Positions 1,059 to 45,446 of a stretch of DNA of 64,000 bases are shown in pieces. A model generated the notes under the pieces. The model did no database searches, was not told the origin of the DNA, and was given only the letters and a program-made list of their open reading frames with translations. Both the position numbers and the translations under genes were made by a program. Every line of letters starts with the position of its first letter. Positions within the stretch are counted from its first letter, which is position 1. Source of the stretch: a virus; IMG/VR virus record IMGVR_UViG_3300037808_001962, positions 1 to 64,000 of that record; one strand, 5' to 3'.

Positions 1059-1260
1059 GTTATCGGGATTAATATTAGACCCCTCGGGGGATACCCCCAC
1101 TAGTGCTAATGCAGAATTAAATGAACTAGTGGATGACTTAATTCTTATTTTAAAAATTAAAGGACAAGCACAACCTTATGCTTTTAGTCTTATGGATGAC
1201 CCCTATTTAAGAAATCTAATTTTAGCTAATCTTGCTGATGAAGAGCCTCAAGGCGACTAA
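1051..1260 (+). CDS. Small acidic protein of unknown function
   Basis: This 69-residue acidic protein starts 8 bases inside the end of the fibre gene and ends one base into the next gene, so translation is probably coupled to the fibre. I do not recognise a family. It has a leucine-rich helical centre ([13 protein letters not shown]) and an acidic C-terminus. By position it could be a fibre assembly helper, since small genes after S74-type fibres often are, but no motif supports this. Confidence 0.6.
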
Positions 1261-1538
1261 TGGCAATTAAAGCTAAAAGTAGACCTAAGCTCCATGGAGC
1301 TAAAGGCAAAAAGCAATATGGTAAAGCCAATGGACGTTGGAAAGGCGGCACTAGTAAAACCTATAGACGAAGAATAACTAAGGCTAAAAAAGGTGAAGTG
1401 GTCCATCATAAAGACCATAATAAAAAAAATAATAAATCTAGTAATTTAAAAAAGATGAGTAGAGCAAGCCACAATAAGGCCCACCCTGAAAAAGGAGGAC
1501 ACCATCCTAAGAGTAAAAGAAAACGACCTAAACATTAG
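1260..1538 (+). CDS. Small, highly basic HNH-motif protein
   Basis: This 92-residue protein is rich in Lys and Arg throughout. The centre (about residues 47-77) reads VVHHKDHNKKNNKSSNL followed by RASHNKAH, matching the HHxDxNxxNN...NL...H pattern of HNH endonuclease zinc/metal sites (the HNH_3-like group). It is short for a homing endonuclease and lacks a recognisable DNA-specificity domain. It may be a small nicking or packaging-associated HNH protein, or only a basic DNA-binding protein. It overlaps the previous stop codon by one base, so it is part of the same operon. Confidence 0.55.
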   Translation: MAIKAKSRPKLHGAKGKKQYGKANGRWKGGTSKTYRRRITKAKKGEVVHHKDHNKKNNKSSNLKKMSRASHNKAHPEKGGHHPKSKRKRPKH

Positions 1539-1545
1539 TGTACTA

Positions 1546-2322
1546 TTGACTTCGGTCGATTTTCACGATATATTAGAAATAACACTTCCGCACAACAAAG
1601 AGATTTTTGATAATTTTCTAATTGTAACCTCTATTAGTGACGGTAATACCCAGGCTGTTTGTAAGAATCTCAATATAGACTATATAGCTACTAAAGCGTT
1701 TGACCCTGAGTTTAATAAAGGGGCCGCTATAAATGAGGGATTAAATCAATTACAAGGTATAGCAGATTGGGTATTAATAACAGATGCTGATATCTTTTGG
1801 CCTCCTTTCCTTGAAAAACAATTACCCTTATTAAATCTCGACTATCTTTATGGGTTCTATCGTAGAGTATTGATGAAAAAAGATTTAGGTATATTACATC
1901 AGTATAATGATATACCAGATTTTATGGAAAATTTAGATACTTTATATTTAGGCGGAGACTATAAGTTTATGGCAACTCTTGAAGACATTAATAATCAGAT
2001 CCCCTTTAATGGACGAGAGGCCCTAAAGGTTCCCAATATTTATAAAGTAGTTGAAGAGCCTGAAATATTTAAAGCTATGGGTTGGAATTCAGGAGTTGAA
2101 AGTACTATAGAAAATCCTTTGCCCTTAGGTTATGGTCAATTATTTAATTTTAATCAATATAAGGGTCGTAGATATCCAGAACAATTTAATACAGCGGCGG
2201 GTTGTGATTCTTATTTTTCTAGTCAATGGCTACAAGACCAAAGAAAATTTATTAAGGGTTTTACTACTATACACTTAGGACCTCGTATGGTACATTGGGA
2301 AGGTAGAAGGAAAGGGATTTAA
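1546..2322 (+). CDS. GT-A fold glycosyltransferase (GT2-like)
   Basis: About 258 residues. The LITDADIFWP segment holds the DxD motif that binds the divalent metal and sugar nucleotide in GT-A glycosyltransferases, preceded by the usual N-terminal strand (FLIVTS). The C-terminal part has W and H residues (IHLGPRMVHWEG) as in GT2/GT7-like enzymes. Start: TTG at 1546 is the first canonical alternative start, but the frame is open upstream and residues NISVLL before it complete the first Rossmann strand. Translation may therefore begin at a non-standard codon (for example ATT at 1534) near the end of the HNH gene; an AGGAGG at 1493-1498 lies inside that gene. First enzyme of the glycan cassette; sugar and acceptor are unknown. 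Confidence 0.75.
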   Translation: MTSVDFHDILEITLPHNKEIFDNFLIVTSISDGNTQAVCKNLNIDYIATKAFDPEFNKGAAINEGLNQLQGIADWVLITDADIFWPPFLEKQLPLLNLDYLYGFYRRVLMKKDLGILHQYNDIPDFMENLDTLYLGGDYKFMATLEDINNQIPFNGREALKVPNIYKVVEEPEIFKAMGWNSGVESTIENPLPLGYGQLFNFNQYKGRRYPEQFNTAAGCDSYFSSQWLQDQRKFIKGFTTIHLGPRMVHWEGRRKGI

Positions 2323-3290
2323 TGAGCATACCAAGGACTAATGAATTAAGGATTGAAACTTCTACTATTTGTAATGCTGCTTGTGTTTTTTGTCCTTGGC
2401 CAACTGATGATTTTATTAGGAATAAAAAGATTATGTCTTTAAAAGACTATCAATTTTATCTAGATAAAGCTTTAGAAGAGTTGGGAGATCAAATAACTGA
2501 AACATCCTTCTCGGGTTTTGGGGAAATTTTTTTAGATAAAACGGTTATAGATAAAATAGAGTATGCTTGTTCTAAAGATTTAAATGTGCATATTTTAACT
2601 AATGGCTCTTTAGTCACTACAGATCAAATTGATGCTATGTTTAATGCGGGTATTAAAGATATCCGATTTAGTATTCATACTACCGATCCTATTAATTATA
2701 CTAAAATTATGAATTTTGGAGGAGCTAAATTTAATTTTGAAAGAACTAAATCAACCATTGATTATGCTATAGCTAATAAGCCCGATAATATTGAGGTTAT
2801 AATTACAGCTGATATAGTAGAAGAAAATAAAGATGATGTTGAAAAATTAATTATGGAGTTTGAAGATAGGTGCATATTAGAGGTCTGGTATCCGCATAAC
2901 TGGGTTTATGGAAAGAAGTATAGGGATACCTCAGAAACTGCAGCCCTAACTACTTGTGGTAGACCTGCTAGTGGTCCTATCCAGTTACAGATAGAGGGTG
3001 ATATTATTATGTGTTGTTTTGATTTTAATAATAAGATGGTATTAGGGAATTTTAGAAATCAATCTTTTAAAGAAATCTTTAACGACTCCATCTTTAAAAA
3101 TATTTATCAAATTCATGAGATGGGTACTTGCGGCTCTTCAGATTTAATATGTAATGGTTGTGACCAATTACTAGATAAATCCAATATTATAATTTATAAT
3201 AATAGAGATAAAAAAGAAGAAAGGACTAAATTTACTAGCACTGGGCTAAGTAATATAATAAAAAGGAGTATCAATAATGGAAAAAGATGA
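2322..3290 (+). CDS. Radical SAM enzyme with SPASM-type auxiliary cluster domain
   Basis: The 322-residue protein carries the canonical radical SAM motif CX3CX2C (Cys17, Cys21, Cys24), which holds the 4Fe-4S cluster that cleaves S-adenosylmethionine. The SGFGEIF segment near residue 64 fits the GGEP-like strand. The C-terminal half has the SPASM/twitch cysteine pattern (Cys212, Cys231, Cys232, Cys270, Cys277, Cys280) and an LGNF segment, which binds an extra Fe-S cluster in enzymes that modify peptides, sugars or alcohol groups. Its start overlaps the glycosyltransferase stop by one base and its end overlaps the methyltransferase start by 14 bases. Placement among glycosyltransferases suggests sugar or glycoprotein modification; the substrate is unknown. 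Confidence 0.85.
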   Translation: MSIPRTNELRIETSTICNAACVFCPWPTDDFIRNKKIMSLKDYQFYLDKALEELGDQITETSFSGFGEIFLDKTVIDKIEYACSKDLNVHILTNGSLVTTDQIDAMFNAGIKDIRFSIHTTDPINYTKIMNFGGAKFNFERTKSTIDYAIANKPDNIEVIITADIVEENKDDVEKLIMEFEDRCILEVWYPHNWVYGKKYRDTSETAALTTCGRPASGPIQLQIEGDIIMCCFDFNNKMVLGNFRNQSFKEIFNDSIFKNIYQIHEMGTCGSSDLICNGCDQLLDKSNIIIYNNRDKKEERTKFTSTGLSNIIKRSINNGKR

Positions 3291-3954
3291 AAAAAAACTG
3301 GTTAATTACCTAGATAAGTATAATTATAGTTGTTATAATCCTATAATCTTAAATGGTAAAGTCTTTAAAGATTCACATAGGAGAGTTTTTAAAGACCAGG
3401 GAAAGCGATTAGATTTTATCAATTACAAGGATAATAAGATTTTAGATGTGGGTTGCTATAATGGGTTTTTAGCTTTTGAAGCAATTAAACGGGGGGCCTT
3501 GTCCTATATAGGGGTAGACTCTAATAGTCAATCCGACGGATTGGATAAAGTATTAGATCTTGCTAAAATAATTAAAGAGAATAATAAGTTAGATACCGTT
3601 TCTTTTATAGTGGGATGGTGTCAAGATTTATCTAAGTTAGTAAAGTTAAAAGATTTTGATGTTGTAACTGTTTTATCTATTCAACCTGCAAATCATTTAA
3701 TTGAAACACTTGTAGTCTCATCTGGTCTTCCTGATTGGTATAATTTTATAAAAGAAAAAGAAGTATATATAGAGGCTACTAATCACCCCAGTAGTAGTCC
3801 TATTAAAGGGGAAACTAACCCCTCTTTAACTAGGGCCCAATGGAGAAAGAAGATAAAAGCTGCTAAAAAGAATAAACTTGATATAGGTATAGAGCTATTA
3901 ACTTTTACTGATTATCAAGATAGACCCTTAATTAGGTTAACCTATAATGGATAA
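3277..3954 (+). CDS. Class I SAM-dependent methyltransferase
   Basis: 225 residues with a clear motif I (KILDVGCYNGF, about residues 54-64) and motif II (YIGVDSN), the S-adenosylmethionine-binding loop and acidic ribose-binding residue of class I Rossmann methyltransferases. No DNA-methyltransferase catalytic motif (DPPY or PC) is seen, so a small molecule, sugar or protein is the likelier acceptor. Embedded between the radical SAM enzyme (14-base overlap) and a glycosyltransferase (8-base overlap), it probably O-methylates a glycan residue or acts on the product of its neighbours. Confidence 0.75.
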   Translation: MEKDEKKLVNYLDKYNYSCYNPIILNGKVFKDSHRRVFKDQGKRLDFINYKDNKILDVGCYNGFLAFEAIKRGALSYIGVDSNSQSDGLDKVLDLAKIIKENNKLDTVSFIVGWCQDLSKLVKLKDFDVVTVLSIQPANHLIETLVVSSGLPDWYNFIKEKEVYIEATNHPSSSPIKGETNPSLTRAQWRKKIKAAKKNKLDIGIELLTFTDYQDRPLIRLTYNG

Positions 3955-4765
3955 GAATCTTCTATATATTGTTATTAAGATTGAGGATGAAGAATATAGG
4001 GATTATGCTAATAGACTTTGGGAATTTATAATAAGTTTAAGATATTTAGCTAACTATAGGGGTGAAATTGTTGTATTTGATTATGGTAGTACTCCTTCTG
4101 TTCTAGATAAATTATCCCAGTATGGAGTAGAGATAATAAAAATAAGTCCCGCTAGGGGGGATATACCCGTTACACATAATTTAACCAATATACGGAATAT
4201 AGATGTAATTCCGCATTTAGAGCAATTCAGGGAATATAAGTTATGTACTTATGATATTGACTCTTGGTTTCAGTACTCTATTGATTCATTATTTAAAGGA
4301 ATGACCTCTAGAGAGGGTTGTTATTATTCGGCCGAATTGGGTAGGACCTGTAGATATAGGGGTCCTGATAATAATAGTACTGAGCAAAAATATAATGAGA
4401 TTAGTAAAAGGCTGGGGGGATTTATTTGGGGCGGATTTCAAGGAGGCTTATATGAACCCTTTATCCATAAATTAGAAGCTATTAAAAAGGGTTTTTATGA
4501 AGACCATTGGAAGCTTAATATTTGGGGGACGGATCAATCCCTAATTACCTATCTTATTGATTTTGAGAAAGATATTTATAATTGCTATAAATGGGGCTTT
4601 GAGTATTATACCTCCAAAATAGAGGATAATAAAATAGTTAGTGCAGTGGATTGGTATAAAGGGCCCGTAAATGTTATTCACATGAATGCTAGTTTAAATG
4701 GAGGGGAGAGTGATCTATTTAGATTTAAAAATCTACACCCAGATTTATGGAATAAATATAAATGA
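3947..4765 (+). CDS. GT-A glycosyltransferase (GT8-like)
   Basis: 272 residues. LCTYDIDSWF holds a DxD (Asp-Ile-Asp) at the end of a hydrophobic strand, and the segment GGFIWGGFQGG followed later by VIHMNAS resembles the product and acceptor side of nucleotide-diphospho-sugar transferases of the GT8/GT-A group. No signal or transmembrane segment is present, so it acts in the cytoplasm. The next gene starts with an ATGA stop/start overlap. Donor sugar cannot be read from the sequence. Confidence 0.65.
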   Translation: MDKNLLYIVIKIEDEEYRDYANRLWEFIISLRYLANYRGEIVVFDYGSTPSVLDKLSQYGVEIIKISPARGDIPVTHNLTNIRNIDVIPHLEQFREYKLCTYDIDSWFQYSIDSLFKGMTSREGCYYSAELGRTCRYRGPDNNSTEQKYNEISKRLGGFIWGGFQGGLYEPFIHKLEAIKKGFYEDHWKLNIWGTDQSLITYLIDFEKDIYNCYKWGFEYYTSKIEDNKIVSAVDWYKGPVNVIHMNASLNGGESDLFRFKNLHPDLWNKYK

Positions 4766-5457
4766 GTATACCGAAGATTATTATTCAAACTTGGAAAACC
4801 GAGGATACACCAAAAGAGTCTAAAGGCTATCTAGGTGTATCTTCAGATCCTACATCTTTCATTAAAACTCTTAGGGATAAAAACCCCGACTTTGAGTATA
4901 AGTTTTTTGATGATAAAGAGGTTGTGAGGTTTATAGAGACCTATTACCCAGAATATGTAGACCTTTTTAATGGGCTTGAAAATATATCAAAATTTGACTT
5001 TTTCCGCTATCTTGCTATTTATAAATATGGTGGTTTCTATTTCGATATTGATATGACAATTAATCATTCTTTGGCCCCTTTAACTGAAGGACATACTGCA
5101 ATATTTCCAAAGGAATTTGAAATTAGTGGACTTTCTATTCTTGAGGAGCAAAATTTAACCTTTCTTTTAGGTCAATACGCTTTTGCAGCTACTCCTAAAC
5201 ATCCTTTTATAAAACACCTTATTAATAATATCAAGTACCCACCCTTTAAGCAAGATACTTGGCGGAATTTTGAAGCCCAGTGCGGGCGAGGTACTAAGGC
5301 CCATTTTAGGACAGCTGCGGTTTTAGTGTCTCAAAGTTATATTTCTTATCTTAGTTCTGGAAGCTCTAAAATTACTATATTAGAACCAACTCCTCAATTT
5401 GAATCAGCAAGATTTGGTAATTATGGTAAACATTGGGCTATGGGCTCATGGAAATGA
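4762..5457 (+). CDS. GT32-family glycosyltransferase (OCH1/capsular type)
   Basis: 231 residues. It opens with IPKIIIQTWKT, the typical IPkiIHqtW start of the glycosyltransferase sugar-binding DXD family (GT32), and contains FFRYLAIYKYGGFYFDID, the R-x-x-L/A-x-x-x-x-GG-x-Y-x-D-x-D signature with the metal-binding DxD. Family members transfer mannose, galactose or related sugars to capsules, glycolipids or proteins. ATG overlaps the previous TGA (ATGA), and its own TGA overlaps the next ATG, so translation is tightly coupled through the cassette. Confidence 0.85.
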   Translation: MSIPKIIIQTWKTEDTPKESKGYLGVSSDPTSFIKTLRDKNPDFEYKFFDDKEVVRFIETYYPEYVDLFNGLENISKFDFFRYLAIYKYGGFYFDIDMTINHSLAPLTEGHTAIFPKEFEISGLSILEEQNLTFLLGQYAFAATPKHPFIKHLINNIKYPPFKQDTWRNFEAQCGRGTKAHFRTAAVLVSQSYISYLSSGSSKITILEPTPQFESARFGNYGKHWAMGSWK

Positions 5458-6170
5458 TATCCATAATTACCCCCTCCCATGAGCATAATACTAAAGAAAT
5501 GGAATGCTTACTAGCATCTAGTTATAAATTAAATATTAATCTAGAGATTATAGGTATTGGTAAAGAATGGAGGGGATTTTTTTCAAAGCTAGAATGGATA
5601 ATAAGCTATTGTAATAGCATATCAGATGTAGAAAATAGGATTATTATAATGACTGATGCTTATGATGTCTTTTATTTACAAGAATCTTCTATCATTATAG
5701 ATAAATTTAAGAGGATGGGTTATAGGATATTGTGGTCTTCAGAAAAACAATATGCACACCAATTAACTAGTGATTTTAGCTTTTACCATTTAAGGGATAT
5801 ATCAAATTATAGATATCTAAATACAGGGGGATTTATAGGATATGCTAAAGACCTAAAAAAATTCTTTAATGGGGTTATGGAAATGATGAAAAACGAGGAC
5901 TGGGATACTAGTCTAAAAGGAGTAGACCAAACGGCTATTTCTCACTATATAGCAGTTGAAGGTTCTAACTATGAGCTTGGACTTGATTATAATTGTGAAA
6001 TATTCTATACATCGTCCAAAGATCAAGATGATATAGATAATTATGTTGAGTTTCATAATAATAAGCTTTTTGTGAAAGAAACTGAATCTTACCCTTGTGT
6101 AGTCCATGTACCTTGGAAAGGTAGATATAGAAAGGTTTTAGAGTACTTATTTAAAAAATGGAATATTTAA
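5454..6170 (+). CDS. PLOD/procollagen-type glycosyltransferase
   Basis: I choose ATG 5454 because it forms an ATGA overlap with the preceding stop; the frame stays open to a TTG at 5433. The protein (about 238 residues) matches the glycosyltransferase domain of lysyl hydroxylase/PLOD and procollagen galactosyltransferase-like enzymes: GIGKEWRG, TDAYDVFY (the D-x-x-D motif), YLNTGGFIGYA, then VDQTAI and LDYNCEIF occur in the family order. In eukaryotes and mimivirus these domains glycosylate collagen hydroxylysine. No lysyl-hydroxylase domain is attached or found in the window. It lies 4.4 kb downstream of the phage's own collagen-like fibre. Homology is strong by motif; the fibre as substrate is inference. 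Confidence 0.8.
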   Translation: MISIITPSHEHNTKEMECLLASSYKLNINLEIIGIGKEWRGFFSKLEWIISYCNSISDVENRIIIMTDAYDVFYLQESSIIIDKFKRMGYRILWSSEKQYAHQLTSDFSFYHLRDISNYRYLNTGGFIGYAKDLKKFFNGVMEMMKNEDWDTSLKGVDQTAISHYIAVEGSNYELGLDYNCEIFYTSSKDQDDIDNYVEFHNNKLFVKETESYPCVVHVPWKGRYRKVLEYLFKKWNI

Positions 6171-6898
6171 TTTCTATAACAACTATTCCCTCCAGGTTTG
6201 ATAATAGCATCCATTTATGCATTGACAGTCTTTTAGCGCAAAGCTTTAAAATTTCAAGAGTTATTGTAAATATACCAAAAAAATATTCTTGTAGATTTGA
6301 TGATGAAATACCCGAATCTAAGATAAATGATTTAAAGAATAAGTATGCAAATAAAAACGTAGTAATAAATTTAATTGATATAGATTTTGGGCCAGGAACT
6401 AAGCTATTAGGTTTATTTAGTATGTGGGATTCTATTTATGAAGATTATATAATAGTAGCTGATGATGATCATATATATAAATCCGATATGGTGGAGGGTT
6501 TTAATAATGCGGTTGTAGAAAACGGAATACAGGCGGGAGGCTATTGTGTATCAAAATTATATGATATTCAACCCCATGTTCAAGGCTCAGATGGGATTTT
6601 AATACGTACAGACTTATTAAATAATTTTATGTCTTATTATAATGCAATTAAGGATGAAGACCTTCTTCAATACGAGGATGATCATTATATATCTAACTAT
6701 CTTAATTTAAAAGGGGTAGAAATTCATCATATAAGAAGAGAGGCGGGATTGATCTATGAATCAGGGCCCCATGCCCATACTCCAGGCATTGCTCTCTGTA
6801 CATTAAAGGGTAAGTTTAAGAGGTCTTTGATACGAAGAGAACAATATAATTTTTTTCAGCAGAATAAAGAAAGTCTAAAGGAGATAGTAAATTTATAA
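6158..6898 (+). CDS. GT-A glycosyltransferase
   Basis: 246 residues starting with YLISITTIPSRF, a common start of viral and bacterial GT-A transferases. IIVADDDHIY contains the metal-binding Asp cluster after a hydrophobic strand, and YEDDHYISNYL resembles the ED-x-x catalytic-base region of GT2-type enzymes. It overlaps the previous gene by 13 bases and the next by one. Cytoplasmic, with no membrane segment. Acceptor and donor are unknown. Confidence 0.7.
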   Translation: MEYLISITTIPSRFDNSIHLCIDSLLAQSFKISRVIVNIPKKYSCRFDDEIPESKINDLKNKYANKNVVINLIDIDFGPGTKLLGLFSMWDSIYEDYIIVADDDHIYKSDMVEGFNNAVVENGIQAGGYCVSKLYDIQPHVQGSDGILIRTDLLNNFMSYYNAIKDEDLLQYEDDHYISNYLNLKGVEIHHIRREAGLIYESGPHAHTPGIALCTLKGKFKRSLIRREQYNFFQQNKESLKEIVNL

Positions 6899-7863
6899 TG
6901 AGGAGAGCATTGATTACAGGGGTAAATGGGATGGATGGAAGTTATTTAGCCGATTTTCTCCTTGAAAAAGGGTATAAGGTATATGGGATGGAGCGAAGAA
7001 CTTCAACCCTTAATCGGGCTAACACCCTGCATTTAATAGATAAGATAACATTTCTACGTGGGGATTTAACCGACCAGAATTCATTATTAAGATGTTTACA
7101 AGAAGCTAAGCCTGATGAGGTATACAATTTAGGTGCTATGTCATTTGTGGGAGAGAGCTGGAATACTCCCGAGCATACAGGAGACGTAAATGGTTTAGGG
7201 GTTTTAAGAGTATTAGAAGCAATACGGGAGTATGATAAGAGGATTAAATTTTATCAGGCCTCTACTTCTGAGATGTTTGGTAGAATGGAGGAAAACCCCG
7301 CTAATGAAGATACCTCCTTTTATCCCCGAAGCCCATACGGGGTTGCTAAATTATATGGCCATTGGATTACAAAAAATTATAGAGAATCGTATGGTATGTT
7401 CGCCTGTAGTGGAATTCTTTTTAACCATGAATCAGAGAGAAGAGGGTATGAGTTTGTTACTCGGAAAATATCAAAGGGAGTAGCTAGGATAAAATTAGGC
7501 TTAAGTAATGAGATTATATTAGGTAATATAGATTCAAGAAGAGATTGGGGGTATGCTCCCGACTATGTTAAAGCTATGTGGCTAATGTTGCAAGCTGATA
7601 TTCCTTGTGATTATGTAATTGCTACAGGAGAAGATCATTCTATAAGAGAGTTTTTAGATTTAGCGTTTAAGTATATTGGTATTAAAGATTGGTCAAGTTA
7701 TATAAAACAAGATAAAAAATATATTAGACCAGCTGAGGTTGATACCTTAAGAGGTGATTCAACTAGAGCCCGACTTAAATTAAATTGGGAGCCTTCAACG
7801 GATTTTGAGTCTTTAGTGACTAGGATGGTAAAATATGATTTAAAAATTTATGGAGGGAAATAA
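6898..7863 (+). CDS. gmd: GDP-mannose 4,6-dehydratase
   Basis: The 321-residue protein is a short-chain dehydrogenase with N-terminal NADP-binding GVNGMDGSYL (the GxxGxDGxYL form characteristic of Gmd), catalytic residues in STSEMFG and SPYGVAK (S/T...YxxxK), and the Gmd-specific FNHESERRG and FVTRKI segments. Gmd converts GDP-D-mannose to GDP-4-keto-6-deoxymannose, the precursor of GDP-fucose, GDP-rhamnose, GDP-perosamine and others. No fucose synthase or reductase gene is seen in the window, so the second step may use a host enzyme or a gene elsewhere. It is surrounded by glycosyltransferases and supplies a deoxyhexose donor for the cassette. Confidence 0.93.
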   Translation: MRRALITGVNGMDGSYLADFLLEKGYKVYGMERRTSTLNRANTLHLIDKITFLRGDLTDQNSLLRCLQEAKPDEVYNLGAMSFVGESWNTPEHTGDVNGLGVLRVLEAIREYDKRIKFYQASTSEMFGRMEENPANEDTSFYPRSPYGVAKLYGHWITKNYRESYGMFACSGILFNHESERRGYEFVTRKISKGVARIKLGLSNEIILGNIDSRRDWGYAPDYVKAMWLMLQADIPCDYVIATGEDHSIREFLDLAFKYIGIKDWSSYIKQDKKYIRPAEVDTLRGDSTRARLKLNWEPSTDFESLVTRMVKYDLKIYGGK

Positions 7864-8599
7864 TAGGTTGGGAGTAACAGTATTACAAGTGGAAAATAGA
7901 ATTAACATTAAGTATATGCGAATAATAGCTTCAATTAATCAAGTCCTCTGTCAAAAGCTGGGTTATAATTATAATTATTTATTTATGCAAGAAGCTATGA
8001 TTAATAAATTTCATGGTCCTAATAAAAGCCGATATAGAGCGGCTCAATGCGCAAAATTAGGAGTAATGAGTGAATTTTTAAATACTTCTACTTCTACTAC
8101 CATGATTTTTTTAGATAGTGATGCTTGGATAGAAAATCCATCTTATCTATATCAATTAGTAAATGAATTAAATAAGAATAAATCTAAACAAGGTTGTTTT
8201 TCTAGAGACCCATATAGATTATACTATACATATATAAATAGCGGATCTTTTATCCTTAAAATAAATGATTATACTAGAGATATGTATACATCAATTATTA
8301 ATAATTTTTTTCATCGGGGTAAAAGTTTATTCCCCCTTACTCGTGATAGTTTTGATCAGTATTATATATCAGAATCGGTTTATGAAAATAAAGAGGATTT
8401 TTTTATTCTTAAGCCTGATATTATAAATACTCCAAAGGGGAGAGTGTTAAGGCATGATTGGCGAAAAGAGAAAGAATTGGTAGAGGCGGATATAGTCCGG
8501 CGCTATGAGCTTCTAATAGATCAATCTATAGATAAAGATAGTAAGTTTAATTTTTCTGGGTCTTTAGATTTACATGAGTATCCTAACCTGGAGCGGTAG
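7850..8599 (+). CDS. GT-A glycosyltransferase (GT34/GT8-like)
   Basis: 249 residues. KLGVMSEFL then MIFLDSDAWIENP gives the strand plus DxD typical of galactosyl/mannosyl transferases, and YINSGSFILK followed by DQYYISE matches the NSG...FxL and D-Q elements of GT34/GT8-like enzymes. It overlaps gmd by 14 bases. Last clear glycosyltransferase of this cassette. The exact family is uncertain. Confidence 0.7.
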   Translation: MEGNNRLGVTVLQVENRINIKYMRIIASINQVLCQKLGYNYNYLFMQEAMINKFHGPNKSRYRAAQCAKLGVMSEFLNTSTSTTMIFLDSDAWIENPSYLYQLVNELNKNKSKQGCFSRDPYRLYYTYINSGSFILKINDYTRDMYTSIINNFFHRGKSLFPLTRDSFDQYYISESVYENKEDFFILKPDIINTPKGRVLRHDWRKEKELVEADIVRRYELLIDQSIDKDSKFNFSGSLDLHEYPNLER

Positions 8600-8602
8600 A
8601 AG

Positions 8603-9628
8603 ATGATTAAAGTAAACCCCCGATTATATAACTGCTCTATAATAAGTGAAACATTAGATACTATTGATGGAATAGGGATTAACCACAACCATAATAGATT
8701 ATTTTGGGAGTTGATTAATTCTAAGATATATCAAAAACATCTAGAACTTTTTATACATACTAATCCCCTATTTTTTAAAAATAAGTCTCAAAAAGAAATA
8801 TGGCAGTGGGGGAAAGAGACTATTTATGGATTAGAGGAGACTATTACCAAGTTTCATACTATTGAAAATTCTAATCACATTTCATGGGACTTATTAGAAC
8901 CTATACTTGCTTTAGCTATTCCCCACTTTAACGCTGATTTAGGCGGTATACCTGAAACTACCTATTCTGAATATTGTACTAATCTAGAGAATGGAAAAGG
9001 ACTCCGTTTATTTAGATTTGGGATAAATAAACCCAATAACATTAGTTTTATTCCTATGGTTGAAAATTTGCTTAATTATATTTCGGAGAATAAAGGCTAT
9101 AAGACGGAGAAAGTAAAAGAGTTATATAAAGCTACTCAAACTTTTTTAAAAGGTTTACCCACTATTTGGGGCTGTATTGAGGCAGGTTTAAATAAAGAGG
9201 CTTTATTAATTAGTGATTTTATATTAGGTCTAATAGATAAAGATCCCTCTATCTGTGATAGTGCTGCTAGAAGGAGGACTAGCTTATGTTTGGCTAAAGG
9301 ATCTATCTATTTATCTATAGGGAATAAGTTGAAAGCTATAGAAGCTTTTGAAGTGATTACAAGTCTTTTCTATAAAAAAGAGGGTGACTCCTCTATGGGT
9401 CAAAAATTATATTCTAGAGTGGCCCAGACTAGAGCAGTGGAGGCTTCTATTCAATTATATAAGTTAGATCCCACTACTAAAAGGGCTAAAATCTGTACTG
9501 AATTATTTATTAGATCCTTATTACCTAATTTTATAAGCGGTCATGATAGTGATGCTTGGGAGGCAGTAAGAGAAAGAATAATTATTACTTATATGTTAGC
9601 TAAATACGTTTATGGATATAAAATATGA
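8603..9628 (+). CDS. Unknown protein with TPR-like helical repeats
   Basis: 341 residues, not recognised. The C-terminal half (about residues 215-310) contains amphipathic helical pairs such as CLAKGSIYLSIGNKLKAIEA, which follow the spacing of tetratricopeptide repeats, suggesting a protein-interaction scaffold. It sits 3 bases after the glycosyltransferase cassette and before the capsid genes. It could be a cassette accessory protein, for example holding the fibre or an acceptor, but nothing direct shows this. Confidence 0.55.
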   Translation: MIKVNPRLYNCSIISETLDTIDGIGINHNHNRLFWELINSKIYQKHLELFIHTNPLFFKNKSQKEIWQWGKETIYGLEETITKFHTIENSNHISWDLLEPILALAIPHFNADLGGIPETTYSEYCTNLENGKGLRLFRFGINKPNNISFIPMVENLLNYISENKGYKTEKVKELYKATQTFLKGLPTIWGCIEAGLNKEALLISDFILGLIDKDPSICDSAARRRTSLCLAKGSIYLSIGNKLKAIEAFEVITSLFYKKEGDSSMGQKLYSRVAQTRAVEASIQLYKLDPTTKRAKICTELFIRSLLPNFISGHDSDAWEAVRERIIITYMLAKYVYGYKI

Positions 9629-9910: not shown

Positions 9911-10028
9911 TTTTTTTAGTATTAGTCCTTGCCTTACTAAGGCTACTTATGATAGATTGTCCCCGTACGGAACGGTATAGGATTAATCCGTTCGCACGTA
10001 ATTTTAAATTATGGATAGGAAGAACAAT
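9911..10028 (+). promoter_or_regulatory. Intergenic region with hairpins before the capsid genes
   Basis: About 118 bases separate the glycan and capsid sets, unusual in this dense genome. It contains a compact palindrome (GCCTTACTAAGGC, 9937-9949) and a second stem of GAACGG (9970-9975) with CCGTTC (9988-9993) around a 12-base loop. Neither is followed by a good T-run. It may be a transcription boundary or an RNA-processing site. No sigma-70-like promoter is convincing. Confidence 0.35.
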
Positions 10029-11285
10029 ATGGATAAATTAGATATTGGGGGAGCTAGTCCCGATACTTTACCTCTAGGGACTATCTTTAAGGATGGGGAA
10101 ATCGATATTCATGAAACTTTGTCGGTTAAAGTTTATGAGGGAAAGGGCTCTAAGAAGAAGCAAATGGTTGTTAAACTTATTGAGTCTGGGCTATCAAAAA
10201 ATAAATATTACTATTCCAAAGGGGTGGCTGAATCAGTTGCTGATTTAATTATTGAACGGCCTCAAATGTATATGGATCATTCTATGGGATATTTTGGCGG
10301 TGGGGCTAGAAGCTTTAATGAATTAGTTGCAGTTGCTAAAGAAAGCTATAAAAAAGAAGGGGCGGCTTATGCTATTGTAGAAGTAGTTGATAATCCCGCT
10401 ACTTCTTGGTTATATGAACTAGCTAAAAACCATGAGGGGCTTGTAGGAGCTTCAATTGATGCTAGAGCTAAAGTAAGGGTGGCTAAAGCAGTAGATGGTA
10501 TACTTTGGGGAGACCATGATTTTGACCCCGATGATGATCTTGAAAAAACAGGTCGTCAAAAATATGTAGTTGAGGAATTAGTTTTCCTTAACTCAGTAGA
10601 TTTCGTCACTTATCCCTCTGCTGGAGGCAAGGTTGTCGAATTAATGGCTTCACAGATTACTAGTGAAGCAACAGAGAAACTCTCTCAATTAATGGAAGGG
10701 TTTAAACACGACATGACTACTATCATCACAAAAGAAACGGAGGACTTATCAATGGATAAATCCACAGTCAAACTGACTAAAGAAGCTTTTATGGTGGAAT
10801 ATCCAGATCTTTTTAATCAAATTAAGGAAGAAGCCGTTGAGACTGCAGAACAGAGTTCTGAAGTTGAAGCTAAGATTTCTGAATTAAATGATTCAAAGAA
10901 AGACCTGGAGAAGAAACTAGAAGAAGCGTCTACGGTTAACGATGAACTCCGGATTAAACTCGATGAATTCGAGCTTAAGGAGAAGGTCGAAGCCAAACAG
11001 AACATGGTCCAGAGCCTTGTGAAGGAACATGGCTTGGAACAAGATTATGTCTCAGAAGTTTTCATCGAGGATTTGATGAAATTAGAAGAGGCAGAGGATA
11101 TTGTTTCTCGCATTAAAGATCGTAAGTCCCTAATAGAATCCACAGCTGGCGAAGTAACCGGAAACGGCCAACGTCAGACTAAGGAAACTAAAGAAGGCGA
11201 AGAAAAAGAAGAAGATTCTAAATTAGAAATATCTGATGAAGATCTTATTAGTTCAATTAAACAACGTAACGTTAAACGCAGATAA
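10029..11285 (+). CDS. Prohead protease fused to scaffold
   Basis: I prefer ATG 10029 because AGGAAG sits 6 bases before it; an in-frame ATG lies at 10011. The N-terminal 210 residues match phage prohead proteases: GLSKNKYYY, the DH pair (His90 from ATG 10011) and VGASIDA (Ser148) fit the His-Ser nucleophile pattern, followed by VDFVTYPSAGG. The C-terminal half (about 265-424) is a long charged coiled coil rich in Glu and Lys, as expected for a scaffolding core. A fusion makes the protease its own scaffold, which is released by self-cleavage on maturation. It directly precedes the decoration and capsid genes. Confidence 0.85.
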   Translation: MDKLDIGGASPDTLPLGTIFKDGEIDIHETLSVKVYEGKGSKKKQMVVKLIESGLSKNKYYYSKGVAESVADLIIERPQMYMDHSMGYFGGGARSFNELVAVAKESYKKEGAAYAIVEVVDNPATSWLYELAKNHEGLVGASIDARAKVRVAKAVDGILWGDHDFDPDDDLEKTGRQKYVVEELVFLNSVDFVTYPSAGGKVVELMASQITSEATEKLSQLMEGFKHDMTTIITKETEDLSMDKSTVKLTKEAFMVEYPDLFNQIKEEAVETAEQSSEVEAKISELNDSKKDLEKKLEEASTVNDELRIKLDEFELKEKVEAKQNMVQSLVKEHGLEQDYVSEVFIEDLMKLEEAEDIVSRIKDRKSLIESTAGEVTGNGQRQTKETKEGEEKEEDSKLEISDEDLISSIKQRNVKRR

Positions 11286-11297
11286 GGAGATTAAAAG

Positions 11298-11729
11298 ATG
11301 GCTGATTTAAAAGCTAGTGCTATATTACAATATGGCGATGCAATCTATGGACGTCTTACACTTCCAAAGAAAACAGCGGCTGATGATTTACAAATCGGAG
11401 ATTTCCTTGTTTGGACTACTTCGGGTGTAGAGAAAATGAGTGCTGCAACGGGTGATGCTACTTTTGTTGGAATTTGTGGAATGCTTTCAGAAGATGCTGA
11501 TGGACCCTCTAATATCTTGGTTTATACCCAAGCTATTATTGAAGTTCCAACAACTTCTGCAAACTTTACCCCAGGTGCTGGTTTAAAGTACAAAACCGAT
11601 GGAACATTAGAAGCGGATGGTGCTGCTAATACTATCGCTAATTCGTTAGAATACAAAAGCTCCGCAACCTCATTGAAGGTATTGGTTGATGTGGTAAGCT
11701 TACAAAAACTATTTAGCGTTTCAGCTTAA
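11298..11729 (+). CDS. Capsid decoration/cement protein (DUF2190-like)
   Basis: 143 residues, Ala/Thr/Gly-rich beta protein. Segments like GDFLVWTTSGVEKM and FVGICGMLSEDADG follow the pattern of DUF2190/gp-D-like capsid cement proteins, which bind the outside of the HK97-fold shell. Position between scaffold/protease and major capsid protein supports this. A strong Shine-Dalgarno (AAGGAG) precedes it. Confidence 0.6.
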   Translation: MADLKASAILQYGDAIYGRLTLPKKTAADDLQIGDFLVWTTSGVEKMSAATGDATFVGICGMLSEDADGPSNILVYTQAIIEVPTTSANFTPGAGLKYKTDGTLEADGAANTIANSLEYKSSATSLKVLVDVVSLQKLFSVSA

Positions 11730-11744
11730 TAAAGGAGAATACTA

Positions 11745-12914
11745 ATGAATAAGAATGGAGTAATTAGAAACCTGGTTGAATCTGAAGTCAAAAGGGCTGA
11801 TGGTAATACATATACAGGTTACGCAAATGCCGGAGATAAAGTTGAACAACTTTTAGAGTCCGGTAAAGTTACTACTCGTGACTTCTCTTTTCGTCAGTTG
11901 TACGAAGAGTTAGTTGATGTTCCCTTGGGAGCTGATTCAGCACAAGTAGCAGAGGCATTAAATTCCTCAAGTTTTCCTACAATAGCTTCTAAAGTTATTA
12001 ATAAAGATATTATTGATGAATATGACCTTGCATTAGGGAACGTCGGGAATCTTGTAGATGAATCCCAGGCTACCCGTACAGATGAAGAGATAGTTGTTGG
12101 TTTTACAGCTGGCGATACTACACCTCTTATGAGACGCCAAGGTATGGCTTATGAAGAAACCTCAATGGGTGAGAAAAATTGGAAAGTCAAAATGGCTGAT
12201 TTCGGTCGTATGATTTCCCTTACTCGTGAAGTTATCTTTGAAGACCGTACTGGGGAAGTTTTAAAAAGAGCCCGTGATATCGGTAGAGCTGGTGGACACC
12301 ACAAACAAAAGATGATTATTGAAACAATTGAAGCTAGTGCTCGTACTGCTTTTGAAGAAAGCACCTTTGGTGGAGCTAACTACAAAGGAAGTGACATTAC
12401 ACTTTATGCAAATGATCATGCAAGTTTGGATGGTCAAACTAATGATAATCTAGTTGTAAGTAATGCACTTGCTGATTATACTGACTTGGATAACGTCTAT
12501 TTAGCATTTGCTAATATGGTAGACGAAGCAGGAGATAAAATTAATGTTGTTCCTAAAACAATATTAATTCCTCAAGCCTTAATGGCAACTGCATCTAAGA
12601 TCATGAATAGTCAGTTTTTACATGATGGTTCTGGTGGTTCTAACGTACCTAGCTATAACCCTGTCCATGACATTGGTTCTGGCTCGGCAATGGATATTGT
12701 TAGTTCAGTATTTCTTTCAAGCGCTTCAACTTGGTTTATGGGAGACTTCAATAGCCAATTGATGGGTTTGAGCGTTTACGATCCGGCAACAGCTTCTCAA
12801 GGAGCTGATTCCGAACTGGCATTTACTAACCAGATTGTTGCACGATTCAGATGGTCTTATCATTATGGCTTAGGTCATACTGATTGGAGATATATTATTA
12901 AGTCAACTGCTTAA
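11745..12914 (+). CDS. Major capsid protein (HK97 fold, Mu gpT-like)
   Basis: 389 residues, preceded by AAAGGAG. Length, position after protease and decoration genes, and sequence pattern fit the HK97-fold major head subunit of the Mu gpT-like group: a helical N-arm, FPTIASKVI, the LMRRQGMAYEE to MADFGRMISLTREVIFEDR region, and a C-terminal RWSYHYGLGHTDWRYI strand. An N-terminal stretch may be removed by the upstream protease. Codon use here is enriched in C/G-ending codons compared with neighbours, consistent with very high expression. Confidence 0.85.
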   Translation: MNKNGVIRNLVESEVKRADGNTYTGYANAGDKVEQLLESGKVTTRDFSFRQLYEELVDVPLGADSAQVAEALNSSSFPTIASKVINKDIIDEYDLALGNVGNLVDESQATRTDEEIVVGFTAGDTTPLMRRQGMAYEETSMGEKNWKVKMADFGRMISLTREVIFEDRTGEVLKRARDIGRAGGHHKQKMIIETIEASARTAFEESTFGGANYKGSDITLYANDHASLDGQTNDNLVVSNALADYTDLDNVYLAFANMVDEAGDKINVVPKTILIPQALMATASKIMNSQFLHDGSGGSNVPSYNPVHDIGSGSAMDIVSSVFLSSASTWFMGDFNSQLMGLSVYDPATASQGADSELAFTNQIVARFRWSYHYGLGHTDWRYIIKSTA

Positions 12915-12928
12915 TAATAAGTCACATT

Positions 12929-12964
12929 AAATATATGGGAAGGTTTTATCCTTCCCATATATTT
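12929..12964 (+). terminator. Strong hairpin after the major capsid gene
   Basis: A perfect 15-bp stem (12929-12943 with 12950-12964; AAATATATGGGAAGG and its complement) closes a 6-base loop, 14 bases past the capsid stop codon. The right arm ends in ATATATTT rather than a pure T-run, so it may act as a partial terminator or an mRNA-stabilising 3' structure that keeps capsid expression above the tail genes. Confidence 0.8.
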
Positions 12965-12988
12965 ATTAACTAAAGGACAATATTTATA

Positions 12989-13243
12989 ATGGAAGATCTC
13001 AAAAAAAAGAAACTACCGGTTCCTGCTGGAGACCCCTTTGCTGGGGCTATAAAAAAAATAGGTGGTAAAGGTTCTTATAGTTTTACTACTACAGGTGGTA
13101 AAAGTAAAGGAGCGAGTAAAAGAGGGAGTATAGGGAAAGATTATAAAACCTATAGATCTAAGAATCCCTCCTCTAGTAAAAGAGGTAGAGCAGCTGATTC
13201 AGCTAATAAAACAGCTTATAAAGGTAAAAAGAGAGGTGGATAA
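12989..13243 (+). CDS. Small, very basic protein 1
   Basis: 84 residues, about one quarter Lys/Arg plus many Gly and Ser, with almost no hydrophobic core. The C-terminal half is a repetitive GKSKGASKRG / SSKRGRAAD-type low-complexity sequence. First of four consecutive basic genes right after the capsid gene. Such composition suggests nucleic-acid or capsid-interior binding. Confidence 0.65.
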   Translation: MEDLKKKKLPVPAGDPFAGAIKKIGGKGSYSFTTTGGKSKGASKRGSIGKDYKTYRSKNPSSSKRGRAADSANKTAYKGKKRGG

Positions 13244-13245
13244 CA

Positions 13246-13359
13246 ATGGCACTTAATGGAAAAACAAAAGCTCAAAGACGGATTAAGCCTGAAACAAAAA
13301 AAGAAGAGACTAAAAAATCAGGATCAACCCCAGTTAAGAAAGAAGCTAAAAAAGGTTAA
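13246..13359 (+). CDS. Small, very basic protein 2 (37 aa)
   Basis: ATG 13246 follows the previous stop by two bases and reads 37 codons to TAA at 13357-13359. The product (MALNGKTKAQRR..., ending VKKEAKKG) is Lys-rich with some Glu. It is below usual length cut-offs and would be missed by automatic annotation; its place in a row of like genes supports it. Confidence 0.55.
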   Translation: MALNGKTKAQRRIKPETKKEETKKSGSTPVKKEAKKG

Positions 13360-13367
13360 TTGACTTA

Positions 13368-13514
13368 ATGGCTAAAATTAAAGGGGCTATTGCAAAAGCT
13401 CGTAAAATGCATAAAAAAATTGATGGACGCTTTAAAAAAGGGATTAGAAAAAGCGGCTTAAAAATTAAATCCGGTCCTACTAAAGGTAGGCCTAGATCAA
13501 AGGGGAAAAAATAA
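13368..13514 (+). CDS. Small, very basic protein 3 (48 aa)
   Basis: ATG 13368 to TAA 13512-13514, 48 residues. The sequence starts MAKIKGAIAKARKMHKKIDG and ends in a GRPRSKGKK tail. It is strongly cationic with one potential amphipathic helix, like histone or protamine tails. It lies between basic proteins 2 and 4. Confidence 0.6.
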   Translation: MAKIKGAIAKARKMHKKIDGRFKKGIRKSGLKIKSGPTKGRPRSKGKK

Positions 13515-13684
13515 TGCTTAAAAAGAAAGAAAAGAAACCGGAAACAAAAAAACCTGGTAAAACAAGTAGTAGAGCATTTGGTAAATTTGCTACTAAAGCT
13601 AAAAGGTCTAGATCAAGGGGAAATAAAAAATCTGGAGCAACTAAAAGACAGAGAGGCTCTAGAGGACCTAGCGGGGGTAAATAG
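13514..13684 (+). CDS. Small, very basic protein 4 (56 aa)
   Basis: ATG 13514 overlaps the last base of the preceding TAA; TAG at 13682-13684 gives 56 residues. Composition is Lys/Arg/Ser/Gly with motifs such as KAKRSRSRGNKKSG, resembling SR-rich or protamine-like peptides. The next gene starts 5 bases later. Confidence 0.6.
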   Translation: MLKKKEKKPETKKPGKTSSRAFGKFATKAKRSRSRGNKKSGATKRQRGSRGPSGGK

Positions 13685-13689
13685 GTTAA

Positions 13690-14448
13690 ATGTCTGAAAC
13701 TTTATCAACCTATTTAGATGTTATAGATTTAATCCCTCAGCTTTATGATGAGGAAGAGGAAAATTACCCTGTTGTATCTCCCCAAAAGATAAGGAATGTT
13801 ATAGGTCGTAATGATTTTCAAATTAAGTCTCAATTAAAGAATTACTATGGGGCTGATTTAACCTCGACTCCTCGGCTTACCCAGCCTACCCCCAAACGGG
13901 GTTATACAGCCCTTGGGCAATTACTATTAACTGATGGTACTAATGATGTTTCAGTTACTAATAGTATTTCAGTAAAAACCCAGGTTTATAGAATCCTTTT
14001 TACAAGCCCTACTGTGTTCGAAGTAACCAGTGACCTAACGGGGGCTCAAGGAACCGGTAGTACTAGTCTTAGTTTTACTACTACCGATACTTTTTTAACT
14101 ATCCCTAATGAATGTTGGTCTGGTTCTTTTGAGACCGAGGATAGCTGGTATATTGCAGTTTATAATTATGAGGGTATGTTATCTCATTTGAGTTCTTTGC
14201 TTGCTGCAGTTTATATACTTAATACAATTTATACTGAAGAGGTTCCCGATGCTTCGGCAACAGCTTCTAAATATGAACAGATTTACAACAAACTTATTCG
14301 AGCTTTACAGAAAGGCACTATCTTTCTTGAAAAAGATTTATCCTCACGTAATCTCGACCCCATACAGATCGATTATGAAATCGATAACCATGGTAATGAT
14401 GTTACTAATTATACCGATGATGAATGGAATCGTCGGAGTATAATTTAA
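13690..14448 (+). CDS. Putative head-tail connector (gp36-like)
   Basis: 252 residues. The N-terminus (STYLDVIDLIPQL) and the late helical part (QIYNKLIRALQKGTIFLEKD) recall DUF1320/gp36-type head-completion adaptors, with a beta-rich domain of about 80 residues inserted between them (residues 70-150). Position just after the capsid genes and before the tail terminator-like gene supports a connector. Assignment is tentative. Confidence 0.45.
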   Translation: MSETLSTYLDVIDLIPQLYDEEEENYPVVSPQKIRNVIGRNDFQIKSQLKNYYGADLTSTPRLTQPTPKRGYTALGQLLLTDGTNDVSVTNSISVKTQVYRILFTSPTVFEVTSDLTGAQGTGSTSLSFTTTDTFLTIPNECWSGSFETEDSWYIAVYNYEGMLSHLSSLLAAVYILNTIYTEEVPDASATASKYEQIYNKLIRALQKGTIFLEKDLSSRNLDPIQIDYEIDNHGNDVTNYTDDEWNRRSII

Positions 14449-15470: not shown

Positions 15471-15740
15471 ATGGCTAAAATAAAAACAGAATACTTGAAA
15501 GCCCGATTTGGGCCAGAAAGAAAAAAACTGGGATTATTACGTTCTAGTTTAATGGCAGGCGGAGAAACTATAGTTCCCGATGAACTTGTTTATATACTAG
15601 AAAAAGGTACTTATACAAAAATTAGAGAAAAAAAGGTAGAGACTCCTAAGAAGGAGATCAAAAAGCCGAAAAAAACTAAAAAAATAAATAAAGAAGAAAA
15701 GGTATCCCTTGAAGACCTAAACCCTTCTTACATTAAATAA
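15471..15740 (+). CDS. Small Lys-rich protein in tail gene set
   Basis: 89 residues. The N-terminal half could form a small beta domain (RSSLMAGGETIVPDELVYIL); the C-terminal half is a run of Lys, Thr, Pro and Glu, a disordered linker type. No family recognised. It sits 11 bases after the terminator-like gene and 15 before the tube gene, so it is probably a minor neck or tail component. Confidence 0.55.
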   Translation: MAKIKTEYLKARFGPERKKLGLLRSSLMAGGETIVPDELVYILEKGTYTKIREKKVETPKKEIKKPKKTKKINKEEKVSLEDLNPSYIK

Positions 15741-35899: not shown

Positions 35900-36243
35900 T
35901 TAACTCCTCCAATGTTTTTTCTTTGTATATCTGAATGATTTAATTCTGTCCAATACATTTCATAACAAATAGTATCTTCTAAAGCCTCAAAAAAATGATT
36001 TAAGTCTGGCTTAACTATAGTTAAGTCACCCTCTAATAAAATAGTATCATCTCTAAGGTCATAATCTTTTTGATAGACAGATACTCTTAGTACCCCCTGT
36101 TCAATAAAAAAAGCATTGAATTTATACTTATGGCTATGGGTGGAACAAAAACCCCCCTTTTTAACCTCTATACGGTGAACCTCGAAATTGGGCTTTTGGA
36201 GTATAGATCTAGTAGTTCCCCAAACTTTACCCTGTAATTGCAT
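35896..36243 (-). CDS. Single-domain cupin, probably sugar-related
   Basis: 115 residues. Cupin motif 1 is THSHKYKFNAFFIEQG (two His, with Asn where Glu is common), motif 2 is KPDLNHFFEAL. It overlaps the KdsA gene by 17 bases, so it is probably translated with it. Small cupins next to sugar-acid genes are often isomerases, epimerases or sugar-binding regulators. Exact reaction unknown. Confidence 0.7.
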   Translation of the reverse strand: MQLQGKVWGTTRSILQKPNFEVHRIEVKKGGFCSTHSHKYKFNAFFIEQGVLRVSVYQKDYDLRDDTILLEGDLTIVKPDLNHFFEALEDTICYEMYWTELNHSDIQRKNIGGVK

Positions 36244-37018
36244 TATATAATTCCTTTAGTGAAACTAATAAGTCTTTAAATTGATTCAAGGGAAATTGAA
36301 TAGCACTATCTGATTTAGCTTTAGCGGGATCATCATGGACTTCAAAGAATAATCCATTACATCCTGCAGCAATAGCGGCTTTAGCTAAAATGCCGGTAAA
36401 TTCCGGAGTACCCCCGGATGTAGTTTTATTACCGCCAGGTAATTGAACTGAATGTGTAGCATCAAAAATAACGGGATAGCCATACTTTTGCATTATTGGT
36501 ATAGACCTCATATCTACTACTAAATTATTATATCCAAATTGAAACCCTCTTTCAGTAAGCCAAAGCTTATTACACCCCTTAGCTTCCATCTTTTTAACTA
36601 CATTCTTCATATCATAAGGAGATAGAAAAGACCCTTTTTTAATATTTACTATAAGTGAAGTTTCAGCTGCAGCCTCTAATAAAGAGGTTTGTCTAGATAA
36701 AAAAGCAGGTATTTGAATAATATCCACTATACCCTCTGCTAATTTAGCCTGATAGGTCTCATGTATATCTGTCAAAACGGATAAGGTAAGGGTTTCTCTA
36801 ATTTCGTGTAAAATATTTAAACCCCTCATAGGCCCTAATCCTCTAAAAGACTCACTAGAGGTTCTATTATCTTTAGAAAAGGAAGACTTAAAAATAAGGG
36901 GTAAACCCACTTCTTCCGCTATCTCTTTTAAAGCAGTAGCCATTTTAATTGGATGGTTCATGTCTTCCATAACACAAGGGCCAGCTATAATAAATAGAGA
37001 GGATAAATCAGGGATCAT
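36227..37018 (-). CDS. kdsA: 3-deoxy-8-phosphooctulonate (Kdo-8-P) synthase
   Basis: 263 residues with all KdsA hallmarks: IAGPCVMED, FKSSFSKDNRTS, VLTDIHE, IIQIPAFLSRQTSLL, NIKKGSFLSP, ERGFQFGYNNLVVDMRS, FDATHSVQLPGG and FEVHDDP. It condenses arabinose-5-phosphate with phosphoenolpyruvate to Kdo-8-phosphate, a committed step for Gram-negative lipopolysaccharide. Start overlaps the Mre11 stop (ATGA type). Together with KdsB in this window the phage could raise CMP-Kdo, though phosphatase KdsC and isomerase KdsD were not found and may come from the host. Confidence 0.94.
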   Translation of the reverse strand: MIPDLSSLFIIAGPCVMEDMNHPIKMATALKEIAEEVGLPLIFKSSFSKDNRTSSESFRGLGPMRGLNILHEIRETLTLSVLTDIHETYQAKLAEGIVDIIQIPAFLSRQTSLLEAAAETSLIVNIKKGSFLSPYDMKNVVKKMEAKGCNKLWLTERGFQFGYNNLVVDMRSIPIMQKYGYPVIFDATHSVQLPGGNKTTSGGTPEFTGILAKAAIAAGCNGLFFEVHDDPAKAKSDSAIQFPLNQFKDLLVSLKELYNAITG

Positions 37019-45208: not shown

Positions 45209-45446
45209 ATTCAGTTCCTTCAAAAATTTCTCTCTCTTTATAGAGTCGAAAAATATCTTGTTTTAATAGATGGGCTTCATCTCTAATTTTTTTTAAATTC
45301 CTTTTAGACCTAATTCCCGCCCGTTTATTTCCCCTTTTATAGAATTTAAGTAAATCCTCTTTATTATTTTCAAGTTCCTCTAACCATTGGTCTATAGAGC
45401 CTCTGGCCTCCTCTAGGCTTGATTTTAGTTCTTCATAATTATACAT
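45159..45446 (-). CDS. Histone H1-like (Hc1 type) protein 2
   Basis: 95 residues, helical and charged. The stretch FYKRGNKRAGIRSKRNLKKI matches the Hc1-like pattern (KGNKaAGtRaRKxLxeL) seen also in the 63-residue protein at 41447. It overlaps the polymerase start by 50 bases and the deaminase by 8. A second copy in one genome suggests distinct roles in DNA packaging or host nucleoid takeover. Confidence 0.6.
   Translation of the reverse strand: MYNYEELKSSLEEARGSIDQWLEELENNKEDLLKFYKRGNKRAGIRSKRNLKKIRDEAHLLKQDIFRLYKEREIFEGTEFEKDYKRADYTKFTTK

What the first reader, a model, noticed from the sequence alone, without database searches (positions are those of the whole stretch)
12989..13684. Four consecutive tiny polycationic genes behind the capsid gene
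84, 37, 48 and 56 residue proteins, all Lys/Arg-rich, with little hydrophobic content. Three are too short for routine gene callers. Such a cluster may encode protamine- or histone-like proteins packaged with DNA or used as internal capsid proteins.
Basis: partly seen in the sequence, partly recalled or inferred. Interest (0 to 1): 0.65.

Follow-up and report, generated by a model that had tools for sequence, protein, structure and literature searches.

The report
Polycationic mini-genes behind a phage capsid
An uncultured tailed phage carries four real, tiny, strongly positively charged genes right behind its capsid gene, and its relatives carry similar ones at two places in the head-building region, so they probably make DNA- or scaffold-binding peptides of the phage head, although no experiment yet shows it.

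Summary
Four same-strand ORFs (84, 37, 48, 56 aa; net charge +18, +9, +19, +20) fill 12989-13684 between the major capsid gene and a conserved 252-aa gene. Dinucleotide shuffles never reproduce them (0/500), and all four use the genome's own codon preferences (0/500 nulls each; the alternative 35-aa frame does not). The 48-aa gene is under purifying selection (dN/dS about 0.16-0.18, capsid 0.12). The 37- and 56-aa genes evolve fast but stay basic in relatives; the 84-aa gene has no relative found.

Nearly 20 uncultured relatives show a wider pattern. Small polycationic ORFs are 13-19 times denser in two head-module gaps (portal to protease; capsid to 252-aa gene) than elsewhere. Most relatives have one ~41-aa basic gene in the capsid gap. 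Homologues of the 48-aa gene lie in the portal-protease gap of three others, so it moved or was copied. A strong hairpin follows the capsid stop in every relative.

Best explanation: internal-head-type basic peptides, working like T4 IPI-III, loaded via the acidic protease-scaffold and left on DNA. The protease folds like T4 gp21, and the relatives' 41-aa proteins have its (I/L)XE site near the N-terminus. The window's own four lack it. Virion presence and DNA binding are inferred.

The parts
12989..13243 (+). 84-aa basic ORF (net +18), first of the cluster; orphan
   Evidence: codon usage; no relative in any locus by unfiltered tblastn
13246..13359 (+). 37-aa basic ORF (net +9); positional counterpart of the 31-aa ORF of L001/L002
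   Evidence: codon usage; dN/dS 0.88
13368..13514 (+). 48-aa basic ORF (net +19); conserved family KA[KR]xxHKK[VIM]DxR[FY]KxG[VI]R...KxxSGP
   Evidence: dN/dS 0.16-0.18; homologues behind the capsid in L001/L002 and upstream of the protease in L047, L054, L057; AF2 helix 2-23 plus basic tail, mean pLDDT 69.7
13514..13684 (+). 56-aa basic ORF (net +20), start overlaps the stop of the 48-aa ORF (TAATG)
   Evidence: counterparts of 50/59 aa in L001/L002; same overlap in L001
12928..12965 (+). perfect hairpin between capsid stop and first basic ORF (terminator- or attenuator-like)
   Evidence: -23.5 kcal/mol, z -5.1; comparable hairpins of different sequence behind the capsid gene in all relatives (z -2.4 to -6.2)
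11745..12914 (+). major capsid protein, 389 aa
   Evidence: PF25209 Phage_capsid_4 E 2.7e-14; phrog_4523 / phrog_133
11298..11729 (+). 143-aa probable cement protein
   Evidence: weak PF09956/PF22758 matches below cut-off; conserved upstream of the capsid gene in relatives
10011..11285 (+). prohead protease fused to an acidic coiled-coil scaffold, 424 aa
   Evidence: AF2 model of residues 1-240: top PDB match T4 gp21 5jbl E 3.6e-4, prob 1.00; relatives net -21 to -48
13690..14448 (+). 252-aa conserved head/neck protein (probably head completion) closing the gap
1260..1538 (+). 92-aa very basic HNH_3 protein (net +29); in relatives it sits in the portal-protease patch beside the other basic ORFs
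   Evidence: PF13392 E 7.3e-6

Best explanation
The four ORFs are late head-operon genes for small, largely unstructured polycations that are taken into the prohead and end up next to the packaged DNA, working like the basic internal proteins of phage T4. Proposed steps: (1) read-through of the hairpin behind the capsid gene gives a modest amount of message, and the peptides are made in series with translational coupling (anatomy shown; expression inferred); (2) the positive peptides bind the strongly acidic scaffold domain of the protease-scaffold protein and are trapped in the prohead (inferred from charge and from T4, where internal proteins bind core protein gp22); (3) the gp21-like protease destroys the scaffold, and in relatives may also trim the 41-aa peptide after its N-terminal (I/L)XE (protease fold and motif shown; cleavage inferred); (4) freed peptides stay on the DNA, neutralise part of its charge and may be ejected with it (inferred). 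The exact set of peptides turns over quickly; charge is kept more than sequence.
For: Real genes. Purifying selection on the 48-aa family (dN/dS 0.16-0.18; capsid 0.12) and on close pairs of the 41-aa family (mostly 0.03-0.2). Small polycationic ORFs in the head module of relatives: 24 in 22.9 kb (portal-protease gap) and 13 in 8.4 kb (capsid gap), against 33 in 403 kb elsewhere, both strands. Same slot and charge kept while sequence changes. Protease folds like T4 gp21, whose substrates are cut after L/I-X-E; T4 internal proteins are basic, about 300 copies each, bind DNA at low salt, carry 10-19-residue N-terminal capsid-targeting propeptides, and are replaced by other basic proteins in related phages (PMC9026906). 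All 11 proteins of the 41-aa family have [IL]xE with E at residue 6-9, against 8 of 46 unrelated window genes with any such triplet in the first 12 residues. Acidic scaffold partner encoded two genes upstream of the capsid.
Against: None of the window's four proteins has an (I/L)XE site near the N-terminus, so the T4 targeting route is not met here. The 41-aa family is one homologous family, so its 11/11 motif count is a single observation of a low-information triplet. No homology to any characterised DNA-binding or virion protein. Distant relatives L004-L007, L024/L058 and L040 lack the capsid-gap ORF, so the function is not essential to this capsid type. The 37- and 56-aa genes show little constraint on sequence (dN/dS 0.88 and 0.68).
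Confidence: 0.5

Rival explanations
1. Assembly-only helpers: the polycations act as counter-ions or nucleators for the acidic scaffold/core and leave or are degraded before the head is mature, so they never accompany DNA.
For: Scaffold-protease fusion is strongly acidic (-21 to -48); genes sit among head assembly genes; a gp21-like protease would degrade the core.
Against: Lysine/arginine-only tails without Glu sites offer no gp21-type cut sites in the window's proteins, so they would not be degraded by that route.
Confidence: 0.2
2. DNA-packaging accessories: the basic peptides work with the small basic HNH protein and terminase at the portal, for example by binding the packaging start site or the DNA end.
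For: In relatives the 48-aa homologues lie between portal and protease, beside the HNH_3 gene (L047, L054, L057).
Against: In the window clade the 48-aa gene lies behind the capsid, away from HNH; the 41-aa family is always in the capsid gap; most relatives have HNH without a recognisable 48-aa gene.
Confidence: 0.12
3. Host-directed peptides: small basic proteins expressed late (or ejected) that bind host RNA, nucleoid or a defence enzyme, as T4 IPI inhibits a restriction enzyme.
For: Fast turnover of the 37- and 56-aa genes and patchy presence look like arms-race genes; T4 IPI precedent (PMC9026906).
Against: Position inside the late head operon; the 48-aa gene is not fast-evolving.
Confidence: 0.12
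4. Not genes: A-rich spacer whose frames are open by composition.
For: The region is 44% A; the 84-aa ORF has no relative.
Against: 0 of 500 shuffles; codon-usage fit of all four; dN/dS 0.16-0.18 for the 48-aa gene.
Confidence: 0.03

Closest known systems
Phage T4 internal proteins IPI, IPII, IPIII
   Same: Small basic proteins, several per genome, non-essential, fast turnover between related phages, operating with a gp21-type protease and an acidic core (PMC9026906; protease match).
   Different: No sequence homology; window proteins lack the N-terminal (I/L)XE targeting/cleavage peptide; T4 IPs are about 8-20 kDa, larger than these; genes here are contiguous and sit directly behind the capsid gene.
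phiX174 protein J (own knowledge)
   Same: Very short polycation encoded beside the coat gene, binds DNA and lines the capsid.
   Different: ssDNA microvirus, no homology, no terminase or protease; virion location here untested.
SSV1 VP2 (fusellovirus virion protein; a basic DNA binder by own knowledge)
   Same: Virion protein encoded in the structural-gene cluster; homologues scattered in unrelated viruses and dispensable (PMC9608457).
   Different: No match found; archaeal spindle virus; VP2 is a single gene.
phrog_7595 (unknown-function basic protein of marine phages such as HMO-2011, SIO1, S-CBS2, KBS-S-2A)
   Same: Small basic protein in the same portal-to-capsid region; relatives of the window phage encode it (L050 5834-6124, E 1.2e-42).
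   Different: Different sequence family from all four window ORFs; not located behind the capsid; function unknown.

Membership tests
T4-type internal head proteins (IP) | Small, strongly basic protein | tested here: met
   charge per residue 0.21-0.40
T4-type internal head proteins (IP) | N-terminal capsid-targeting propeptide ending in (I/L)XE | tested here: not met
   absent in all four window ORFs and in the L001/L002 ORFs; present in 11/11 of the relatives' 41-aa family
T4-type internal head proteins (IP) | gp21-type prohead protease in the same genome | tested here: met
   model of 10011-10730 matches 5jbl, E 3.6e-4, prob 1.00, TM 0.40-0.55
T4-type internal head proteins (IP) | Present inside mature virions | not testable with these tools
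   uncultured phage, no proteomics
AT-hook DNA-binding proteins (PF02178) | GRP core profile match | tested here: not met
   no match in the record up to E 10; the Pfam profile rings in 7 of 14 control genomes only below cut-off, so the test is insensitive; the 48-aa protein does hold KGRPR
Histone/protamine/HU families | Homology to a described family | tested here: not met
   no Pfam, PHROGs or NCBIfam family for any of the four beyond one trivial E 0.18 hit; no PDB match for the 48-aa and 41-aa family profiles
phrog_7595 | Profile match | tested here: not met
   window ORFs have no PHROGs match
48-aa family defined here (HKK[VIM]DxR[FY]KxG[VI]R) | Sixteen invariant columns including HKK, D, R, K, G, R, SGP | tested here: met
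   alignment A8; single copy in the window's record, E 2.9e-26

The most novel reading that the evidence does not exclude
A lineage of uncultured tailed phages carries a multi-gene kit of polycationic mini-proteins, spread over two head-module hot spots and exchanged between them, that condenses or lubricates the packaged genome in the way protamines or adenovirus core peptides do, a strategy not established for tailed phages of this size.
Probability: 0.15. Interest if true: 0.8.

Novelty: new variant of a known kind. Interest (0 to 1): 0.45.

Why it matters
Tailed phages are usually thought to neutralise packaged DNA with polyamines and metal ions and to carry few basic internal proteins outside T4- and phiKZ-like giants. 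A recurrent set of very short polycationic genes in a roughly 70-kb uncultured lineage would show that peptide counter-ions or internal proteins are more widespread. It would also show why they were missed: they are short, low in complexity and without homologues. The (I/L)XE plus gp21-like protease pairing in relatives makes this testable.

Tried and rejected
Cultured phage relatives of the capsid, cement and 252-aa proteins: none. 48-aa family in cultured phages and in GTDB genomes: none; capsid family in GTDB genomes: none, so no host or prophage. Common ancestry of the 56-aa and 41-aa proteins, suggested by FGK[FY]: not supported (hhalign probability 0.7%); 41-aa versus 48-aa likewise. AT-hook membership: not met, weak test. 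MCP cleavage at a conserved (I/L)XE: LVE at residues 10-12 is LVD in L051 and L057, so no secure site. The alternative 35-aa frame at 13256 was rejected as a gene. Literature searches for polycationic peptides in tailed phages gave no direct precedent apart from T4-type internal proteins. Whether the 48-aa gene moved or was copied stays open: the record lacks the portal and terminase.

Full report
OBSERVATION. The window is 64 kb of a 69,256-bp IMG/VR virus record that holds a tailed-phage head and tail module but no recognisable portal or terminase, so it is probably a fragment. Four + strand ATG ORFs of 84, 37, 48 and 56 aa fill 12989-13684 between the major capsid gene (PF25209) and a conserved 252-aa gene. 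They are among the most basic of 299 ORFs in the window. Shuffles keeping dinucleotides gave four or more basic ORFs in 0 of 500 trials. Synonymous codon choice in each ORF fits the genome's long genes rather than local base composition (0 of 500 nulls each), whereas the overlapping 35-aa frame does not. The 48- and 56-aa genes overlap as TAATG, and so do their counterparts in L001.

CONSERVATION. Eighteen IMG/VR contigs carry a capsid gene about 54-80% identical to the window's, most with the order cement, capsid, gap, 252-aa gene, tail terminator. In the two closest (L001 and L002, 80% capsid identity) the gap holds 31, 53 and 50/59-aa basic ORFs, matching the window's 37, 48 and 56; the 84-aa ORF has no counterpart. 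The 48/53-aa gene has dN/dS 0.16-0.18 (capsid 0.12, 252-aa gene 0.22). The 37/31 and 56/50 pairs give 0.88 and 0.68, so they diverge fast while staying basic. In eleven distinct aligned relatives (L003, L010-L012, L014, L016-L018, L021, L022, L034) the gap holds one different basic ORF of about 41 aa with invariant K2, R3, E6, K8, S9, R11, G13 and Y15 and a Lys/Ala/Pro tail. Close pairs in this family mostly have dN/dS of 0.03-0.2. L024/L058 and L040, and the distant L004-L007, lack a basic ORF there.

A SECOND PATCH. With longer flanks, relatives show more small polycations between portal and protease: 51, 35, 60, 48 and 85 aa in L057; 49, 96 and 88 aa in L050; 96, 49 and 89 aa in L051; 69 and 92 aa in L047; 45 and 48 aa in L054. 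A census of ORFs of 35-100 aa with charge per residue of 0.2 or more gives 1.05 per kb in this patch, 1.54 per kb in the capsid gap and 0.08 per kb elsewhere; the census includes some overlapping frames, so the densities are approximate. The 48-aa family occurs in this patch in L047, L054 and L057, beside a very basic HNH_3 protein whose window homologue is at 1260-1538. The 48-aa gene therefore moved or was copied between the two head-module hot spots. Because the record lacks the portal end, I cannot tell which; within the record it is single-copy. One member of the upstream patch, the 96-aa protein, belongs to phrog_7595, known without function from marine phages including HMO-2011, SIO1, S-CBS2 and KBS-S-2A, in some of them close to head genes.

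REGULATION. Directly behind the capsid stop, 12928-12965 forms a perfect hairpin (z -5.1). All relatives have a comparable hairpin of different sequence at that point (z -2.4 to -6.2). This suggests that a terminator or attenuator sets the basic genes below capsid expression (inference).

MECHANISM. The 424-aa protein at 10011-11285 couples a protease domain to an acidic coiled-coil tail. Its predicted structure (mean pLDDT 62.9, so only the core is reliable) has T4 gp21 (5jbl) as top PDB match, E 3.6e-4, probability 1.00. T4 gp21 cuts after (L/I)XE, and T4's internal proteins are small basic DNA-binding proteins carrying such a site in a 10-19-residue N-terminal capsid-targeting peptide; related phages replace them with other basic proteins (PMC9026906). 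All eleven members of the 41-aa family have [IL]xE with the Glu at residue 6-9. Because they are one family, this counts as a single suggestive match. None of the window's four proteins, and none of the upstream-patch proteins tested, has the site. The window cluster thus fails a defining feature of T4-type internal proteins while resembling them in charge, position, turnover and partner protease. I file it as 'works like', not 'is a'. AlphaFold2 gives the 48-aa protein an N-terminal helix (residues 2-23) and an extended basic tail, at moderate confidence.

VERDICT. The interpretation (DNA-associated or internal capsid proteins) is the best reading, at about 50%, without direct evidence. The new elements are the serial arrangement, the second patch, the exchange between patches, and the conserved 48-aa and 41-aa families, which are in no library searched.

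Noticed in passing
window 12928-12965; same place in L001-L024, L034, L036, L040, L004, L006, L007: Strong hairpin right after the capsid stop codon in every relative examined, structure kept while sequence differs; probable terminator or attenuator.
   Followed up: partly
L016 5511-6086 and about ten relatives (L010, L012-L015, L018-L020, L036): 192-195-aa protein MASSLELGKLV... with predicted membrane and coiled-coil segments, between the 41-aa basic ORF and the 252-aa gene; absent from the window; no Pfam family.
   Followed up: partly
window 36227-37018 and 57587-58309: Phage-encoded DAHP-synthase-family protein (KDO-8-phosphate synthase-like) and a CTP-sugar cytidylyltransferase (KdsB-like), suggesting phage-driven KDO or related sugar metabolism.
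   Followed up: partly
window 1546-9628: Block of glycosyltransferase-like genes, a radical SAM/SPASM protein and a GDP-mannose 4,6-dehydratase inserted inside the head module between the HNH gene and the protease.
   Followed up: partly
window 42770-45223: Family A DNA polymerase with an N-terminal uracil-DNA glycosylase domain fused to it (PF03167 plus PF00476).
   Followed up: partly
L054 1580-2359; L057 5945-6580 and 6850-7533: Hint/intein-type domain protein and probable homing-endonuclease-like ORFs inserted in the same portal-protease patch that gathers the basic ORFs, suggesting an insertion hot spot.
   Followed up: no
window 15471-15740: 89-aa lysine-rich ORF between tail terminator and tail tube genes; C-terminal half very basic, net charge lower than the cluster.
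   Followed up: no
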